Shown: positions 1,216-37,949 of the stretch, piece after piece
How the letters are laid out: every line of letters starts with the position of its first letter
How positions within the stretch are numbered: position 1 is the stretch's first letter
Origin: Bacteroidota bacterium
Lineage (GTDB): Bacteria > Spirochaetota > Spirochaetia > JABMQR01
Assembly (NCBI GenBank): GCA_013202335.1
Contig: JABMQR010000016.1
Location: 1-37,949, forward strand
DNA length: 37,949 nt
Direction: 5' to 3'
Position numbers and translations under genes: made by a program
Notes under the pieces: model-generated
Database searches by the model: none
What the model was told of the DNA's origin: nothing
Seen by the model: only the letters and a program-made list of their open reading frames with translations

Positions 1216-1300
1216 GTAATATTATTAAATATATTAACTATTTTAATTATATTATTAATTTTATTAATATATATCTATATTATATTAATTATCGTCATTT
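1216..1300. other. very AT-rich intergenic stretch between divergent transcription units
   Basis: The intergenic region 1109-1430 contains no convincing gene. Its centre (about 1216-1300) is almost pure A and T, with many short TTAAT/ATTAA runs. It lies directly upstream of the -35 box of the minus-strand operon and may act as an UP element or a bent, nucleoid-protein-binding segment. A TTGACA at 1396-1401 with a poor TACAGT at 1417-1422 (15-base spacing) may be the weak promoter of the plus-strand phosphodiesterase gene. Confidence 0.4.
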
Positions 1301-1430
1301 ACAAAGAAAAGTACTCTTTTCCAGACCTGATACTCTTGTCCAACCTCCGTCCCTCCGTCCTCCTGGTCCAGCCTCCCGTCTCCCGCACACCCTTCTTGAC
1401 AAAAGCTCGGAATAGCTACAGTTTATAAGA

Positions 1431-23101: not shown

Positions 23102-24316
23102 TTAAGCTACTACATAATTAGCAATATAGCTCCCACATACTCTACCCAGACTAAGATTTTTTAAAGGAGTAACTATTTCACCACACCAAATACTTCGCCA
23201 TGTTTCTGGTATTTGAGGAATGTGGGATAGAAAAAATCGACGATCCTCAGACATCCATTTTTTGCATTGGTCTAACAACTCCGACTCAATTCCTGCCATC
23301 TCAGCATGTGACAGAAAATCAGCAGCTCTACTGTTTATTCTATAGGATTTGAAAATGTTGTGCCAACACATATAAATACTGATTCTGTACATCTGACAGC
23401 AGAGATCCCGTGCAAAACAGACACTTTTACGATGAAATTCAGAGAGATCCTTTCGCAGCTCCCTTTCAAAATAGTTTACAGCAAACAATTCATTTCTTAA
23501 ATCACGTAATTTATGGGAACTTATCTGAATATGAGAAAAATCCCCTATATTAGTAAGTTTTCTGAGGGTGGTATGACGATGCAAAGCGGTAACATACTGA
23601 GTTTTATAATCCGTATATAACAATAAAGGATTTACTGCCCCACTTCGGGAATGCAATCCATTCATCTGATCGGCCAGCTCTAGAAATTTATTGGTTATAG
23701 ACCCCCTGGGGAATTTAGCTGTTTTATAGAGCTCTTCGCAACGCTGTTGTTGTTTGGCTGTTTTTCTTCCCTTTCTTTTAAATGGGGCTACATTATAGAA
23801 AAAACATAATTGACTGATCTTTCCTACTAATATGTGAATATCATGTGGTGAGTATTTACTGAAAGCATACGACTCAAATCCATCAGCAACAAGCGGTTCA
23901 CTGAGTTTCGCTGTATGTAAAAGTAGTGTTTGAATAGCAATCGACTGTCGGGAAAGAATTGCAATTTTATGAAGTATCGTTGCCGGGCTGCAGTGTAAAA
24001 TAGCAGCCATCCCACGAATCGAGGTGCTACGAACCAGGAGCTCCTGTAAGCGAGTAAAATTGAATTTTATACGCTGGTAAAAGTGTAGAGAAAATTGATT
24101 TTGACTAAAGGATCGATCACAACTTTTACATCCGTATCGTTGGCGGCGAATACCACTTTTAAGCTTATACGTACCAACTTTATTATACCAAATGGTAAAA
24201 TTCTGAGACAAGTGAATATCGGGATTGTGATTTTTGCAATCCTTATATGGACAGAAAGGGGGAATGAAAACATCGATACTTTCAAATTTTACTTGTTTTT
24301 GCATTGCCATTAACAT
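23102..24316 (-). CDS. transposase, zinc ribbon plus IS1-like DDE domain
   Basis: A 404-residue transposase. A zinc ribbon sits at the N-terminus (C22, C27, C63, C66: FCPYKDC and YGCKSC), then a helix-turn-helix near residues 95-118 (RSTSIRGMAAILHCSPATIL). Putative catalytic acids are D145 (LVADGFESY), D236 (LLYTDYKTQY) and E284 in FERELRKDLSEFHRKSVCFA. That last block resembles the conserved ER...R...RK-CF motif around the glutamate of IS1-family transposases. It is longer than IS1 InsAB and is one uninterrupted frame, so no frameshift is needed. GGAGG lies 8 bases before the ATG. The gene looks intact, so the element may still be active. The family placement is by motif only. Confidence 0.75.
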   Translation of the reverse strand: MLMAMQKQVKFESIDVFIPPFCPYKDCKNHNPDIHLSQNFTIWYNKVGTYKLKSGIRRQRYGCKSCDRSFSQNQFSLHFYQRIKFNFTRLQELLVRSTSIRGMAAILHCSPATILHKIAILSRQSIAIQTLLLHTAKLSEPLVADGFESYAFSKYSPHDIHILVGKISQLCFFYNVAPFKRKGRKTAKQQQRCEELYKTAKFPRGSITNKFLELADQMNGLHSRSGAVNPLLLYTDYKTQYVTALHRHTTLRKLTNIGDFSHIQISSHKLRDLRNELFAVNYFERELRKDLSEFHRKSVCFARDLCCQMYRISIYMCWHNIFKSYRINSRAADFLSHAEMAGIESELLDQCKKWMSEDRRFFLSHIPQIPETWRSIWCGEIVTPLKNLSLGRVCGSYIANYVVA

Positions 24317-27796: not shown

Positions 27797-28474
27797 TCAA
27801 TTTTTTAATGCAGATCGTAACAGAACCATATACTCAGACCGGGGAATCGTTATGGCTCCCAGTAAGGCTAAATGATCGTTCATCACCTGACAATCTATCA
27901 TAGTCATTCCTAAACCCATTAGGTGACGATACAGGGTGATAAGTGCGGTCTTTGATGCATTTGGAACATGAGAAAACATCGATTCACCGAAAAAGGCTGT
28001 TCCTAAATGCAGCCCGTAGAGTCCTCCTGCCGGTTTATCTGAAGAGTAGTCAGCATCCCACACCTCAACTGAGTGGGCGTACCCCAGCCTGTGGAGCTCA
28101 CAATATGCATCCAGTATCTCATCTGTAATCCAGGTACCATCCTGACCCGGGCGTTCAATTTCACGGCATGAACGAATCACAGAGCGAAAATCCTGATTAA
28201 ACGTTACAGTGAGGTTTGTTCTGTTTAGAAAACGTTTCATGGATTGAGAAACATGCAGTTTCCCCGGCAGAATAACTGCCCTTTCCCCGGGATTCCACCA
28301 GATGATTGGCTCATCGGGGCCATACCAGGGGAACACACCCTGTTCATAGGCTGAAAGAAGCATGCCCGGAGAGAGATTTCCACCAACGCCAGCTATACCA
28401 GACTCGTCAATATCATCTTCACCCGGAAATTGTATTCTCTGATCCTCTTCGAAAAAGGGAAAAGTCTCTTCCAT
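27797..28474 (-). CDS. aat: leucyl/phenylalanyl-tRNA--protein transferase
   Basis: A 225-residue cytoplasmic enzyme that adds Leu or Phe from charged tRNA to proteins with N-terminal Arg or Lys, marking them for ClpS/ClpAP. Family segments are clear: GNLSPGMLLSAYEQGVFPWY, IIWWNPGERAVI, GTWITDEILDAYCELHRLGY, AHSVEVWD and LYGLHLGTAFFGESMF. It starts 2 bases after the clpA stop without a good ribosome-binding site, so its translation is probably coupled to clpA. Grouping with clpA and clpS puts the enzyme and its readers in one operon. Confidence 0.94.
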   Translation of the reverse strand: MEETFPFFEEDQRIQFPGEDDIDESGIAGVGGNLSPGMLLSAYEQGVFPWYGPDEPIIWWNPGERAVILPGKLHVSQSMKRFLNRTNLTVTFNQDFRSVIRSCREIERPGQDGTWITDEILDAYCELHRLGYAHSVEVWDADYSSDKPAGGLYGLHLGTAFFGESMFSHVPNASKTALITLYRHLMGLGMTMIDCQVMNDHLALLGAITIPRSEYMVLLRSALKN

Positions 28475-28476
28475 AT

Positions 28477-30852
28477 TTAATCTACAGATTCAGTAACAGA
28501 AGCAGTGACAGTGTCAGCAGCAGAAGCTGTGTCGGTGGCCAAATTCTTAGTTTGCAGGTCGAGTTCATCGTCCTTAATATCCACACACGCTGTTCCACCG
28601 CCGGACAGAGTTCCGAAGAGAATCTCATCAACAAAGAAATCTTTCAGACGATCCTGAACCAGCCGTGAGATGTTTCTGGCTCCAAATTCATCGGAGTACC
28701 CTTTCACAGCAAACCATTCTACAGCTTGATTTGAGACTTCAAGTTTGACCTGTTTCTTTTTAAGCTGAGCGGAAAAATCATGGATCTCTTTTTCCACGAT
28801 CAGCATAATTTCTTTGTGGGCCAGTCGCTTGAAGGTTACAATTTTATCAAGTCGATTCCGGAATTCCGGAGAAAATATCTTTTCCAGAGCATTTCCGACA
28901 GAGCTGGTTCCTGCAGCAGCCTCGACAAATCCGATCATGCGCTTTCCAAGATCTCTTGCACCGGCGTTACTGGTCATGATAATTATAACATTCCTGAAGT
29001 CTGCTTTTCTTCCCATATTATCGGTAAGAGTTGCATAATCCAGAATTTGCAGCAGGATATTGTAGACATCCTGATGGGCTTTCTCAATCTCATCCAGCAG
29101 TAGCACCGCGTGCGGCTGCCGTCGTACTGCATCAGTCAAAAGTCCACCTTCATCATATCCAACATATCCTGGGGGAGATCCTACCAGTCTGCTGACTGTA
29201 TGTTTCTCCTGATACTCACTCATATCGAATCTAATCATGGGAATATCCAGAACATCGGCCAGCTGCACACAAAGCTCTGTTTTCCCCACCCCGGTGGGTC
29301 CCACAAATAGGAAAGAGGCGACAGGTTTTCGTTCATTGCCAAAGCCGGCCCGGTTTCTCTTTATTGCACTTGAAACAGTTAAAACTGCCTCATTCTGCCC
29401 AAATAATCGGGTCTCAAGCTCGGTCTCCAGTACTTTCAATCTGTCAATCTCTGATTTATTTACATTTGTTACCGGTACACGGGCAATTCCAGCCACAATT
29501 TTCTCGATAAATCTGACATCTACCCGCTTCACCTTTTTACCGCTCCGGGATCCGTCCGGTTTTTCTGCAGCAGTCTGAAGCTGCATGAATGCCCCGGCTT
29601 CGTCAATAACGTCAATTGCTTTATCAGGAAGACATCGTTCCCGAATATATTTTGTAGAAAGTTCTACTGCTGCCTTAATTGCTTTATCGGTGTACCTTAC
29701 ATGGTGGTACTCCTCATAGCGCTTTTTAAGACCTTTTAGAATATCGAGAGTCTCTTCCTGGGTGGTTTCCGGCACTTCCACTTTCTGGAATCGTCGGGAA
29801 AGTGCACCATCACGGTTAAAAATCTTCTTGAATTCATCCTGGGTCGTAGATCCGATACAGCGGATTTTACCGGATGCAAGTGAAGGTTTCAACAAGTTTG
29901 CACCATCGACTGAACCACCGGAGACTGATCCTGCACCTATGATTGTATGTATTTCATCAATAAAAAGAATCGCTTCCCGCTGTTCAAGCTCTTTGAGAAC
30001 CGCTTTCAGGCGCTCCTCAAAATCACCACGATATTTCGTACCTGCGAGAAGTCCCCCCATATCCAGCTCAAACACTTCTGCTTTTTTCAGTCTGGCCGGA
30101 ACATTCCCGGTCTGAATTCTTTGGGCGATACCTGCTGCAAGGGCAGTCTTCCCAACTCCCGGATCACCTACTAAAATCGGATTATTTTTTATCCGTCTGC
30201 ACAATATCTGCAAGGTTCGGTCAAGAATCTGTTCCCGTCCGATCAATGGATCAAGAGTTCCTTCAATGGCAGCATGTGAGAGATTTTGTGTATATAATTC
30301 CAGAGGACTTTTCTTTTTACTCTGGCCGCTTTGACCGCTATTACTATCACCCTCAGCTCTATCTCCCTCATTTTGATCAATGTGAGTATCAGAACTCTGC
30401 TGCTGGTCATCCATGTTTTCCAAGAAACCAGGGAGTCTGTGGCTAATAATTTCCAGTAAAATGTATTTTGTAAGACCCTCTTTCTCAAGGAAAAATGAGG
30501 CATAGGATTCAGGTTCATCAAATATGGAAGCAAGAATATCAGATAATTCAAGGAACTCTTTTCGAGAAGATTCTGTATGCAAAACTGCGCGTTCAATTAC
30601 ATCCTGAAAACCTACTGATTGAGTTGGTTCCCCATCCAGCTCTACAAGAGGAAGCTTTTCAGCAAAAAATGTATTCAGCTTCTCTTTCAGCAGCTCTATA
30701 TCAATCCCGGAGGATTCAAGGATAAATATTGATTCATCATAGTACAGTAGGGAATACAGCAGATGCTCAGGTGTAATATATTCATGATGATGTTCCCGTG
30801 CTGTTAAATATGCTGTTCCCAAGGCTTCCTGAACCTTTTCTGATACTTTCAT
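28477..30852 (-). CDS. clpA: ATP-dependent Clp protease ATP-binding subunit ClpA
   Basis: A 791-residue AAA+ unfoldase. The N-domain (residues 1-145) has the two Clp repeats (REHHHEYITPEHLLYSLLYY). The first ATPase domain has GDPGVGKTALAAGI and ILFIDEIHTIIGAG; the second has VGPTGVGKTELCVQLA and LLLDEIEKAHQDVYNILLQI. The IGF loop that docks on ClpP (RMIGFVEA) is present, so it works with ClpP, which is encoded elsewhere. The acidic Ser/Gln-rich linker around residues 148-178 is longer than in E. coli ClpA. The C-terminal tail is threonine- and alanine-rich. It follows clpS after an 84-base gap filled by an array of small hairpins. Confidence 0.95.
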   Translation of the reverse strand: MKVSEKVQEALGTAYLTAREHHHEYITPEHLLYSLLYYDESIFILESSGIDIELLKEKLNTFFAEKLPLVELDGEPTQSVGFQDVIERAVLHTESSRKEFLELSDILASIFDEPESYASFFLEKEGLTKYILLEIISHRLPGFLENMDDQQQSSDTHIDQNEGDRAEGDSNSGQSGQSKKKSPLELYTQNLSHAAIEGTLDPLIGREQILDRTLQILCRRIKNNPILVGDPGVGKTALAAGIAQRIQTGNVPARLKKAEVFELDMGGLLAGTKYRGDFEERLKAVLKELEQREAILFIDEIHTIIGAGSVSGGSVDGANLLKPSLASGKIRCIGSTTQDEFKKIFNRDGALSRRFQKVEVPETTQEETLDILKGLKKRYEEYHHVRYTDKAIKAAVELSTKYIRERCLPDKAIDVIDEAGAFMQLQTAAEKPDGSRSGKKVKRVDVRFIEKIVAGIARVPVTNVNKSEIDRLKVLETELETRLFGQNEAVLTVSSAIKRNRAGFGNERKPVASFLFVGPTGVGKTELCVQLADVLDIPMIRFDMSEYQEKHTVSRLVGSPPGYVGYDEGGLLTDAVRRQPHAVLLLDEIEKAHQDVYNILLQILDYATLTDNMGRKADFRNVIIIMTSNAGARDLGKRMIGFVEAAAGTSSVGNALEKIFSPEFRNRLDKIVTFKRLAHKEIMLIVEKEIHDFSAQLKKKQVKLEVSNQAVEWFAVKGYSDEFGARNISRLVQDRLKDFFVDEILFGTLSGGGTACVDIKDDELDLQTKNLATDTASAADTVTASVTESVD

Positions 30853-30865
30853 CCGTCTCTCCTAA

Positions 30866-30939
30866 AGCAGTACTTTGCTACATGAGTTGTACTCAACTCA
30901 GTTAGTTGTACCCAACTACGTATTAGCAGTACACTGCTA
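30866..30939. repeat. array of four GTAC-centred palindromes between clpS and clpA
   Basis: Four imperfect palindromes follow each other: AGCAGTACTTTGCT, AGTTGTACTCAACT, AGTTGTACCCAACT and AGCAGTACACTGCT. The GTAC cores start at 30870, 30889, 30908 and 30929, a period of 19, 19 and 21 bases. Stems change in pairs (CA with TG, TT with AA), so each unit stays self-complementary. The second unit extends to 7 base pairs (30883-30900), and the fourth overlaps the clpS stop codon. It is either a set of protein-binding sites on one DNA face or a string of RNA hairpins. Confidence 0.75.
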
Positions 30940-31266
30940 CGCTTCCTCAAGTATGCATTTAAGTGGAAAATTTTCCTTAAATGCTAAATGCATAACTCTT
31001 TCGGCTTTCGTACGTGCAATATCATGAACATAAGTTCCCGCTACACCACGTCCTTTATGATGAACCTCCATCATTATCGAAGCAGCAGCTTCAGGTGATT
31101 TTTGAAACACCTTCTGCACTGTTTTTAAGACAAACTCCATAGTTGTAAAATCATCATTCATCAGAATGACATGAAACATTGAGGGTTCTCTTATTTCAGC
31201 TTGCTGTTCATTAACAGTCGAGAATCCCGTTTTTCCTGTCTGACCATCTCTCTGCTCATGGGACAT
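30937..31266 (-). CDS. clpS: ClpS adaptor protein
   Basis: A 109-residue adaptor that delivers N-degron proteins to ClpAP. The binding-pocket motifs are visible: FHVILMNDDFTTMEFVLKTV, then MMEVHHKGRGVAGTYVHDIA. The N-terminal tail of about 25 residues is polar, as required for ClpA engagement. I place the start at ATG 31266, because GGAGA lies 9 bases before it; a TTG at 31275 would overlap that spacing. It follows nifU by 27 bases and precedes clpA. Its stop codon lies inside the last palindrome of the array. Confidence 0.93.
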   Translation of the reverse strand: MSHEQRDGQTGKTGFSTVNEQQAEIREPSMFHVILMNDDFTTMEFVLKTVQKVFQKSPEAAASIMMEVHHKGRGVAGTYVHDIARTKAERVMHLAFKENFPLKCILEEA

Positions 31267-31293
31267 TTCACTCAATCTCCATAGTCATTTGTA

Positions 31294-31902
31294 TCATTTT
31301 ACATAAACATGCAGAAATTCATCAAGCAAATCGGTGGCTTTGGATTTACATTTCCCGCATCCGGTACCAAGACCGGTTTTTTCCTGAAGCTGTTCCAGTG
31401 TTTCCACAACTCCATCTTTCACCAATTCCTCGATTTGCTGATCTGTTACCCCTTTGCATTCACAAATAATCTTTGCTACGCTGGCTTTAAATGGGTTATC
31501 CCGCTTTTGCCTCTCCAGATAATCATCGATTGCTGCCCGCAGGGCTTTATCTCCCAGTACTGAACAGTGAAATTTATGCTGAGGAAGTCCGCCCAGTTTA
31601 TCAGTTATCATTTGCGGAGATAGGTTATACGCTTCCTCAAGTGTCATACCTAAAGCCATTTCCGACATCATTGAGGTACTTGCAATTGCGCTAGCGCATC
31701 CATAGGTCTTCCACTTGCACTCTACTATCGTGTCATTCTCAATTTTTATGACTACCATCATTTGATCACCACATGCCATACTGCCCACAATTCCCTTGCC
31801 ATCTTCCTTATATTCAGGATCCAACAGGATGTTTTTTGGGTTCATGAAATGTTCTTTTACAGTGTCTGTATATACCCATTCATTAAAAAAGCTATCGCTC
31901 AT
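31294..31902 (-). CDS. nifU: NifU/IscU-like Fe-S scaffold with C-terminal BFD-like [2Fe-2S] domain
   Basis: A 202-residue protein. The N-terminal IscU-type domain has C44 (ACGDQ, with D46), C69 (YGCASAIAST) and C113 (HCSVLG), the scaffold ligands. The C-terminal domain has four cysteines in the BFD-like pattern, C147/C149 (CECKGV) and C182/C185 (GCGKCK). This is NifU without the third, Nfu-type domain. It builds Fe-S clusters with sulfur from the cysteine desulfurase, whose gene it overlaps by 4 bases. IscU-plus-BFD proteins are usual in epsilonproteobacteria and spirochaetes. Confidence 0.88.
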   Translation of the reverse strand: MSDSFFNEWVYTDTVKEHFMNPKNILLDPEYKEDGKGIVGSMACGDQMMVVIKIENDTIVECKWKTYGCASAIASTSMMSEMALGMTLEEAYNLSPQMITDKLGGLPQHKFHCSVLGDKALRAAIDDYLERQKRDNPFKASVAKIICECKGVTDQQIEELVKDGVVETLEQLQEKTGLGTGCGKCKSKATDLLDEFLHVYVK

Positions 31903-36126: not shown

Positions 36127-37949
36127 TTATTTTCCTGCTCCTGTATTCATCGATCTCAGGAACGCTTCATTATTCTTACTTTTCTTCATCCTGTCAATTA
36201 GCATCTCAGTCATTTCGATATCTTCGAGAGAATTCATTGCATTTCGTAAAACCCACAATTTTGATATCTCATTTTCCTGCAGAAGCAGTTCCTCACGACG
36301 GGTACCGGATTTCTTTATATTAATCGCGGGAAACAATCTTCTGTCCGCCATTCTGCGATCCAGAACTATTTCATTATTACCTGTCCCCTTGAACTCTTCA
36401 AAAATAACCTCATCCATTCTTGATCCGGTCTCGATCAGAGCAGTTGCCACTATAGTGAGACTTCCACCATGCTCAATATTTCTTGCTGCACCAAAAAATC
36501 TTTTTGGTTTGTGCAGAGCATTAGAGTCGACACCACCGGAAAGAATTTTCCCAGATGTAGGAACTGTCTGGTTATAGGCACGGGCTAAACGGGTAATTGA
36601 ATCCAAAAGTATTACAACATCCCGCTTATGCTCAACTATGCGTTTTGCTTTTTCAATAACCATTTCGGCAACTGATACATGCCGGGATGCCTGTTCATCA
36701 AAGGTAGAAGCAATAACCTCCCCTCTTACATTTCGGCGCATATCGGTTACTTCTTCCGGCCGCTCATCAATCAGCAGTACAATTAGTTCTACCTCAGGGT
36801 GATTTTCTGAGATAGAATTCGCAATCTTCTGCAGAAGTACTGTTTTACCTGTTCGTGGTGGAGATACAATCAACCCACGCTGTCCTTTTCCAATCGGGGC
36901 AAACAGGTTAATAAGTCTGGTAGAAATATCACCTTTTACGTTTTCCAGATTCAAACGCTCATCTGCATACAGAGGGGTAAGACTGTCAAATCCAACACGG
37001 GTCTGTGCGAAAGAGGGGTCATCATTATTAACTGTCTCAACACGCAGCATCGCAAAAAATCTCTCTCCGTCTTTTGGCGGGCGTATTTGCCCTGCTACGG
37101 TATCACCAGTTTTAAGGTTAAAAAGTCTGATTTGTGATGGTGAAATATAGATGTCATCCGATCCGGGCAAGTAACTGTTCTGTGGTGATCTGAGAAAACC
37201 ATATCCGTCAGGTAATATTTCCAGTGACCCGTAAGCGAAAATAACTCCGCCGGAACGGGTATGTGCTTTGAGGATCTCAACAATAACTTCCTGTTTTTTC
37301 ATAACAAGAAGAGCTTCAACCTGAATTCCCCATTCATTTGCTTTGTCGCGCAAATCAGGTACACTCATCGCAGATAAATCATTTATGCTGAGCTTTTCTC
37401 CCTCATGCTCTGAAGAATAGGGAGCCTGTACTGTTTCCGTATGTTCCCGGACATTGCGGTTATTTGGTCTTTTATTGTTCGACTTATTGTTATATTTACC
37501 ACTATTACCACTATTCCCGCTATTTCCGCTATTCCCATGTGCAGGTTTTGATGAATACTTTGAACTCTGGCGCTGCCCTCTGTTACCAGGTTTATCGTAA
37601 TTTCTTAATTCAGTCTCACCCATCGTCATTCTCGCATGTGCTGGAATATCATCATTTATCGGGTTTGCTTCAATATTGGATTGTGTTTGTTCTTGCGGTT
37701 TAACGTCGCCGTTATCACGTCGCTGCTGTGGCTGTTCTTCTCTTTGGCTCGGTTTCTGTACATGAGCACGTTCTCGAGGTTTGGGTTGAGATTGATGTTG
37801 ATGTTGGGTCTCTTTGGGTGCGGGGGTACTTTCTACAGGCTTTTCGCTTATAACCGGAGCTGGTGCTTCTGGTTTTACTTCTGGTTTTACTTCTGGTTTT
37901 ACTTCTGGTTTTACTTCTGGTTTTACTTCTGGTTTTACTTCTGGTTTTA
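36127..37949 (-). CDS. rho: transcription termination factor Rho, with long low-complexity N-terminus (5' end outside window)
   Basis: 606 residues are visible and the frame is still open at the window edge. Reading from the edge: at least seven KPEV repeats, a Gln/Pro/Glu-rich part, then a Gly/Asn-rich part ([28 protein letters not shown]). The Rho core follows: Rho_N helix bundle ([20 protein letters not shown]), cold-shock RNA-binding domain ([16 protein letters not shown]), Walker A ([14 protein letters not shown]), Walker B ([14 protein letters not shown]), Q-loop ([12 protein letters not shown]) and R-loop ([15 protein letters not shown]). An ATG at 37629 has no ribosome-binding site and the frame upstream is intact, so the real start is beyond the window. 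It forms the RNA-dependent ATPase hexamer that ends transcription. Confidence 0.95.
37498..37536 (-). repeat. 9-base tandem repeat encoding GNSG units in Rho
   Basis: Four nearly identical 9-base units encode Asn-Ser-Gly in frame inside the Rho N-terminal extension. Such repeats expand and contract easily, so length differences between strains are expected. Confidence 0.6.
37867..37949 (-). repeat. 12-base tandem repeat encoding KPEV units in Rho
   Basis: Six complete copies and 11 bases of a seventh copy of TTCTGGTTTTAC (plus strand) reach the window edge with no change between copies. On the minus strand they are in frame with rho and encode Val-Lys-Pro-Glu. Perfect identity points to recent expansion. 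Confidence 0.8.

What the first reader, a model, noticed from the sequence alone, without database searches (positions are those of the whole stretch)
30866..30939. Four GTAC-centred palindromes at a two-turn period between clpS and clpA
Units AG-(CA/TT)-GTAC-N-N-(TG/AA)-CT repeat with cores 19, 19 and 21 bases apart, and stems differ by paired changes. The array fills the gap and even covers the clpS stop codon. It could be a cooperative operator in front of clpA, an RNA hairpin string that sets the ClpS to ClpA ratio, or a small repeat family of unknown origin. I know of no described element of this form at clpS-clpA.
Basis: seen in the sequence. Interest (0 to 1): 0.7.

Follow-up and report, generated by a model that had tools for sequence, protein, structure and literature searches.

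The report
Tandem hairpin array between clpS and clpA
Between two genes of a protein-degradation operon in an uncultured spirochaete lies a real string of four tiny DNA/RNA hairpins, which a sister species keeps in an altered form and which resembles a few similar strings near gene ends in close relatives; what it does, if anything, is not known.

Summary
The array is real. In the clpS-to-clpA sense it is four hairpins, three perfect (6-7 bp) and one with a mismatch, all with loop NGTA; the first contains the clpS stop. Chance does not explain it. The genes are clpS and clpA, followed by aat, in a spirochaete. Relatives G001 and G002 (ClpA 76-77%) have a 24-nt gap without it. The 85% sister G003 has a diverged three-unit version: one 8-bp hairpin, two decayed, spaced 14 and 17 bases, which argues against a phased operator. 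Elsewhere the 14-mers occur no more often than a control (79 against 109 matches). However, the nearest genomes G001, G003 and G004 hold a few tandem arrays with other stems around the same G-NGTA-C loop, several beside or across stop codons; a matched control core gave none. Best reading: a small, clade-restricted kind of locally amplified hairpin array at gene ends, with fast unit turnover and stems kept by paired changes. An mRNA role between ClpS and ClpA is possible but undemonstrated. REP/BIME-like in looks, not shown to be REP.

The parts
30866..30879 (-). unit 4 (sense): AGCAA-AGTA-CTGCT, imperfect hairpin next to the clpA ribosome site
   Evidence: -2.4 kcal/mol alone
30883..30900 (-). 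unit 3 (sense): TGAGTTG-AGTA-CAACTCA, 7 bp
   Evidence: -7.6 kcal/mol
30903..30918 (-). unit 2 (sense): TAGTTG-GGTA-CAACTA, 6 bp
   Evidence: -5.8 kcal/mol
30924..30939 (-). unit 1 (sense): TAGCAG-TGTA-CTGCTA, 6 bp; contains the clpS stop codon
   Evidence: -6.8 kcal/mol
30937..31275 (-). clpS, 112 aa, TAG stop at 30937-30939
   Evidence: Pfam PF02617 E 9e-30
28477..30852 (-). clpA, 791 aa
   Evidence: Clp_N, AAA_2 and ClpB_D2-small domains
30857..30863 (-). likely clpA ribosome site AGGAGAG (GGAGAG kept in G003)
   Evidence: seen in the sequence
27797..28474 (-). aat (leucyl/phenylalanyl-tRNA protein transferase) directly after clpA: an N-degron gene set
   Evidence: PF03588 E 5.9e-69

Best explanation
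It is a locally amplified string of short hairpins in the clpS-clpA spacer, one of a small, clade-restricted kind of tandem hairpin array, mostly at gene ends, in this spirochaete group (loop NGTA closed by G-C, stems differing from locus to locus). Shown: the array, its paired changes, its presence in diverged form in one sister and absence in the next two, and a few same-loop arrays elsewhere in the nearest genomes. Inferred: arrays start from a small palindrome near the stop codon, grow and shrink by slippage of the hairpin unit, and keep matching stems by hairpin-templated correction, by selection on the mRNA hairpin, or both. Any effect is most likely at the mRNA level between ClpS and ClpA translation, and modest.
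For: Array and chance tests. Sister G003 keeps a 3-unit version; the flanking genes show 46-54% identity at 4-fold sites, and with the window array taken as ancestor an 8-bp loop-4 stem survived or arose by neutral point changes in 0.1% (50% identity) to 0.8% (80%) of simulations. Unit number, order and spacing differ between the two, so the array turns over. Paired changes: 36 of 42 cells paired and 8 cells changed on both sides in 7 units, 1 and 0 of 500 shuffles as high. Same-loop arrays with other stems: G003 C101 ATGAG/CTCAT (second unit TGTA, first ATTA) across a stop TGA and the next ATG; G004 C145 ACAAG/CTTGT 4 nt after a stop; G004 C58 GCTGAG/CTCAGC 2 nt after a stop; G001 C236 GTTATG/CATAAC; G001 C183 and C124 CGCAG/CTGCG in palindromic mosaics. 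Three-unit GTACNC places in 98 genomes: 6 of 54 distinct listed places have stems of 5 or more, against 0 of 90 for CATGNG (p 0.002) and 0 of 78 typed GATCNC rows. Model R2: 14 of the 15 matches at E<=1 in 40 genomes are in G001, G003 and G004.
Against: Two of those six (G089, G076), and G037 with a stem of 4, lie inside long open frames; without the two it is 4 of 54 against 0 of 90, p 0.018. R2 was built from most of the arrays it refound (only G001 C124 and one weak G013 match are new), so its E-values are circular. The arrays in G004 and at G001 C236 were found by a GTAC search and G001 C183 by a model of the array; the samples scanned without a loop preference (20% of G003, 15% of G001) also hold tandem hairpins with other loops, for example GAAT in L413. 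The mosaics at G001 C101, C124 and C183 are crossed by several short open frames, so 'intergenic' is not proven there. In one search, the number of pairs with both-sided change (323 of 500 shuffles as high) and of pair types (336 of 500) are not unusual. Two of three G003 units have broken stems. Slippage and correction are not observed.
Confidence: 0.5

Rival explanations
1. A functional mRNA element: the hairpin string after the clpS stop separates clpS from clpA translation or shields the clpS message, setting the ratio of adaptor to unfoldase.
For: Covariation; three window units fold alone at -5.8 to -7.6 kcal/mol and the G003 end hairpin at -6.8; in the five arrays that abut a gene end with clear sense (window, G003 clpS, L369 second unit, L458, L457 by its nearest gene) the sense strand reads NGTA in the GTAC units.
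Against: Whole-region RNA folding is not unusual (z -1.24, 26 of 200 shuffles as good); units are weak and the one next to the clpA ribosome site is the weakest (-2.4); two of three G003 units are broken; G001 and G002 do without; two of the five arrays are orthologous, so the orientation rests on four.
Confidence: 0.25
2. A cooperative operator for a dimeric repressor in front of clpA.
For: Four palindromic sites about two turns apart in the window.
Against: Spacing 14 and 17 and broken palindromes in G003; no promoter-like site between clpS and clpA (simple sigma-70 consensus only); of 20 relative stretches fetched around a 14-mer match, 20 have it inside an open frame of 80 aa or more (coding not tested further); CIRCE 0 hits, CtsR-type 4 hits against 5.6 expected and none in the array.
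Confidence: 0.07
3. A member of a dispersed REP/BIME-like mobile palindrome family moved by a tyrosine transposase.
For: Small palindromes in a cluster; three of four window units and the first G003 unit carry GTAG at the foot; G001 has long mosaic palindromic stretches with CGCAGTACCCTGCG.
Against: Model R1 finds in G003 only the clpS-clpA copy; the 14-mers occur no more than control in 198 relatives; the foot tag is absent from the other arrays; stems are locus-specific.
Confidence: 0.1

Closest known systems
REP / BIME repeats (GTAG- and CGTC-tagged palindromes; PMC3733652, passages read)
   Same: Short extragenic palindromes, stems 5-13 bp for GTAG families, clusters frequent; the paper names Spirochaetes among the phyla with CGTC repeats.
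   Different: No fixed tag at the foot across arrays, no dispersed copies found, stems vary by locus while the loop is kept; 'GTAC' at a word start has 0 occurrences in that paper.
Tandem palindromic repeats at stop codons in other spirochaetes
   Same: 15-21 base hairpin units in tandem starting at, across or 3 nt after a stop codon.
   Different: Other loops; near-identical units in L075, L049 and L413 rather than paired variants (L046 does vary by pairs).
Quasi-palindrome correction by template switching (PMC3820800, abstract start in the listing)
   Same: Would give paired changes in hairpin arms without selection.
   Different: A mutational process, described there in yeast; not shown here.

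Membership tests
REP/BIME | Conserved tetranucleotide (GTAG or CGTC) at the foot of the palindrome | tested here: not met
   GTAG at the foot in 3 of 4 window units and 1 of 3 G003 units, not in L457, L458 or L459 (by eye)
REP/BIME | Many dispersed extragenic copies in the genome | tested here: inconclusive
   Not met in the sister G003 (R1 finds one copy); the window's own genome is not held
REP/BIME | Associated tyrosine transposase (RAYT) | not tested
   -
HrcA/CIRCE or CtsR operator | Consensus site (typed from recall) in front of a clp gene | tested here: not met
Described structured RNA (Rfam) | Match to a covariance model | tested here: not met
   30600-31300: one sub-threshold snoRNA hit at 30640-30722, outside the array
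Loop-kept tandem hairpin arrays of this clade (proposed here) | Two or more adjacent hairpins with G-NGTA-C core outside genes | tested here: met
   L369 has one NGTA and one ATTA unit
Intrinsic terminator | G+C-rich stem then T run in the gene's sense | tested here: not met
   the one terminator-like hit in the array is on the opposite strand

The most novel reading that the evidence does not exclude
A clade-specific class of gene-end hairpin arrays in which the loop (NGUA closed by G-C, read in the mRNA sense) is the recognised part and the stems are free to differ from gene to gene: a loop-binding factor, or a copying process that leaves GTAC as its signature, builds and maintains such strings directly after stop codons, including between clpS and clpA.
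Probability: 0.18. Interest if true: 0.72.

Novelty: new variant of a known kind. Interest (0 to 1): 0.45.

Why it matters
Arrays that keep the loop and hairpin form while stems change offer a natural test of whether short palindromic strings at gene ends are selected RNA elements or by-products of replication. The spacer lies inside an N-degron gene set (clpS-clpA-aat), where an altered adaptor-to-unfoldase ratio would be measurable.

Tried and rejected
Chance: rejected. The 14-mers as a regulon: 57 of 198 genomes have a match to AGYWGNGTACWRCT, 79 matches in all against 109 for the reversed control; I fetched 20 stretches (19 of them around perfect palindromes) and in 20 of 20 the site lies in an open frame of 80 aa or more. 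Plasmid hit: none. Rfam: none in the array. BLAST of 96 bases around the array in 198 relatives: best E 0.0076, short pieces only. ClpS in IMG/VR: one distant hit, 38%. Linker AATACG after a GTAC unit, seen in the window: no excess elsewhere (1 in 670 kb of G001, 0 in 551 kb of G003, 7 in 878 kb and 16 in 1.13 Mb of controls). Single G-NGTA-C hairpins are not enriched in general (3 of 705 loop-4 stems in G003, 9 of 869 in G001, 3 of 1309 in 80 spirochaete loci); two more in G003 lie inside genes. Dropped as members after reading: G089, G076, G037 (inside long open frames) and G001 C167 and C213 (inside one long open frame each). G092 is a two-unit case near a tRNA, frames not tested; G070 C46 was not looked at. 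One search scored 81 CATGNG places; I had left out 9 listed places, which adds (no stem over 3), so the control is 0 of 90. Of the literature searches only named clpS and clpA (3 papers, none on this by title or abstract start); all but PMC3733652 were seen as listings only.

Full report
WHAT IS THERE. The window is spirochaetal: 78 of the 80 kept ClpA loci in genome contigs are labelled as spirochaetes (two of them by genus name only), the top one 76% identical. The array sits between clpS (30937-31275, minus) and clpA (28477-30852, minus), with a NifU-like gene and a class-V aminotransferase upstream and aat downstream. Read in the sense of the genes it is TAGCAG-TGTA-CTGCTA, TAGTTG-GGTA-CAACTA, TGAGTTG-AGTA-CAACTCA and AGCAA-AGTA-CTGCT. 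The first holds the clpS stop; the last ends just before the likely clpA ribosome site. Observation confirmed, with one correction: the hairpin dyad is one base off the GTAC dyad, so the shared feature is a loop NGTA closed by G-C.

MORE THAN CHANCE. The window has 19 loop-4 stems of 6 bp or more and 3 of them are here. Clusters of three or more stems (loops 3-5, gaps up to 8): 1 in the window (this one), 0 in 551 kb of G003, 1 in 285 kb of G001, 1 in 878 kb of 80 spirochaete loci, and 1 in 200 Markov sequences of window size. As single-stranded DNA the region folds better than all 200 shuffles (z -3.66); as RNA it does not stand out (z -1.24).

RELATIVES. Of 30 loci listed with their clpA start, 1 (L248, genome G003, ClpA 85% over residues 1-566) has a like array by eye; G001 and G002 (76-77%) have a 24-nt gap without it. 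A second look from ClpS, 15 loci, gave the same single case. A mechanical scan of the 110 nt before clpA in 110 loci (some genomes twice) found a loop-4 stem of 6 or more in 6, only L248 with a loop of this sort (AATA); the window has three. After the TAG the G003 gap reads TTG-GGAA-CAA, then CAG-AGTA-CTG, then AAAAGTTG-AATA-CAACTTTT, then GGAGAG. Loop spacing there is 14 and 17 by my count, not 19 to 21. Only the last is a strong hairpin (-6.8 kcal/mol; the others -1.0 and -0.2). The flanking genes are 46-54% identical at 4-fold sites. In simulations that take the window array as ancestor, an 8-bp loop-4 stem remained or arose in 0.1% of cases at 50% identity and 0.8% at 80%. So the hairpin was probably kept, extended or remade rather than passively left over. 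Unit-level covariation over 4 window and 3 G003 units: 36 of 42 cells paired (1 of 500 shuffles as high), 8 cells changed on both sides (0 of 500), but the numbers of changed pairs and of pair types are not unusual (323 and 336 of 500). The units are related and hand-cut, so this is support, not proof; two of the changed pairs may be one event.

A SMALL KIND, NOT COPIES. The degenerate 14-mer occurs in 57 of 198 relatives, 79 matches against 109 for the reversed control; in the 20 stretches fetched the site lies in an open frame. Model R1, made from the array, finds only the clpS-clpA copy in G003. But tandem CAGTACNCTG gave 11 matches in 118 genomes, all in G001 (six places on five contigs), against 0 for the reversed control. 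Two of these places (C167, C213) lie in one long open frame each; C101, C124 and C183 lie in palindromic mosaics crossed by several short frames. A three-unit GTACNC search then showed arrays with other stems: G004 C58 and C145, and G001 C236. A repeat scan without loop preference had already shown ATGAG-ATTA-CTCAT and ATGAG-TGTA-CTCAT in G003 C101. As a control for the loop, three-unit CATGNG gave 90 distinct listed places with no stem of 4 or more, against 8 of 54 for GTACNC (p 0.0003; stems of 5 or more 6 of 54, p 0.002). Among 78 typed GATCNC rows, 2 had a stem of 4 and none of 5. Two of the six (G089, G076) are inside long open frames, which leaves 4 of 54 (p 0.018): G004 C58, G004 C145, G001 C236, and G092 C311, a two-unit case near a tRNA. 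Raw counts of three-unit GTACNC are not higher than the reversed control in most of the 98 genomes; among the four nearest the excess is in G001 (11 against 4) and G004 (7 against 0). Model R2 over 40 genomes finds 15 matches at E<=1: 6 in G004, 2 in G003, 6 in G001 and 1 weak one in G013; since R2 was built from most of these arrays, it mainly shows that no other genome of the 40 has a strong one.

POSITION. Arrays lie at gene ends in several cases: across the stop codon in the window, in G003 C101 (where the 21-base period is in frame with the next gene's start codons), in G001 L413 (end of a 74-aa open frame), and in the more distant L075 and L049; 2 nt after a stop in G004 C58 and 4 nt after one in G004 C145. 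G001 C236 has no clear gene end beside it. Intercistronic gaps are short, so closeness to stops is partly expected. In the GTAC units of the arrays with a clear gene sense the loop reads NGTA in that sense (window, G003 clpS, C101, C145, and C58 by the gene it abuts), which is only suggestive with so few loci.

MECHANISM. Most likely these are locally amplified hairpin units that grow and shrink by slippage and whose arms are kept matched by hairpin-templated correction and perhaps by selection on the mRNA; these steps are inferred. A phased operator is disfavoured by G003. A role in the ClpS:ClpA ratio is possible, and the gene set (clpS-clpA-aat) makes it worth testing, but nothing here shows it. 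The boldest reading left open is that the loop is what is recognised, stems being free.

Noticed in passing
L046:5366-5556: Nine-copy 21-base array 3 nt after a stop codon in another spirochaete, with paired changes between hairpin units (CCGTAGAGGCTACGG and CCGTGGAGGCCACGG).
   Followed up: partly
L075:2466-2525 and L049:4229-4331: Four- and five-copy tandem hairpins that include the stop codons of clpA and of a gene that looks like a peptidyl-prolyl isomerase (label recalled, not tested).
   Followed up: partly
L405:7100-8400, L431: G001 carries long mosaics of many small palindromes, with repeated GGAAATC/GATTTCC hairpin strings and many degenerate CGCAGTACCCTGCGG units (6 exact CAGTACNCTG in the 3-kb locus L431).
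   Followed up: partly
L369:5595-5641: The 21-base hairpin repeat is in frame and offers three ATG starts to the gene that follows a peptidase-like gene (label by eye, not tested).
   Followed up: no
L460:1150-1192: A 7-base GTACAGA tandem repeat directly after a stop codon in G001.
   Followed up: no
window 37866-37949: Seven perfect copies of a 12-base repeat (CTTCTGGTTTTA) at the end of the window.
   Followed up: no
window 1219-1321: AT-rich palindromic stretch followed by a single GAAAAG-TACT-CTTTTC hairpin.
   Followed up: no
window 23102-24316: 404-aa open frame without any Pfam match at E 0.001; it looked transposase-like to me by eye only.
   Followed up: partly
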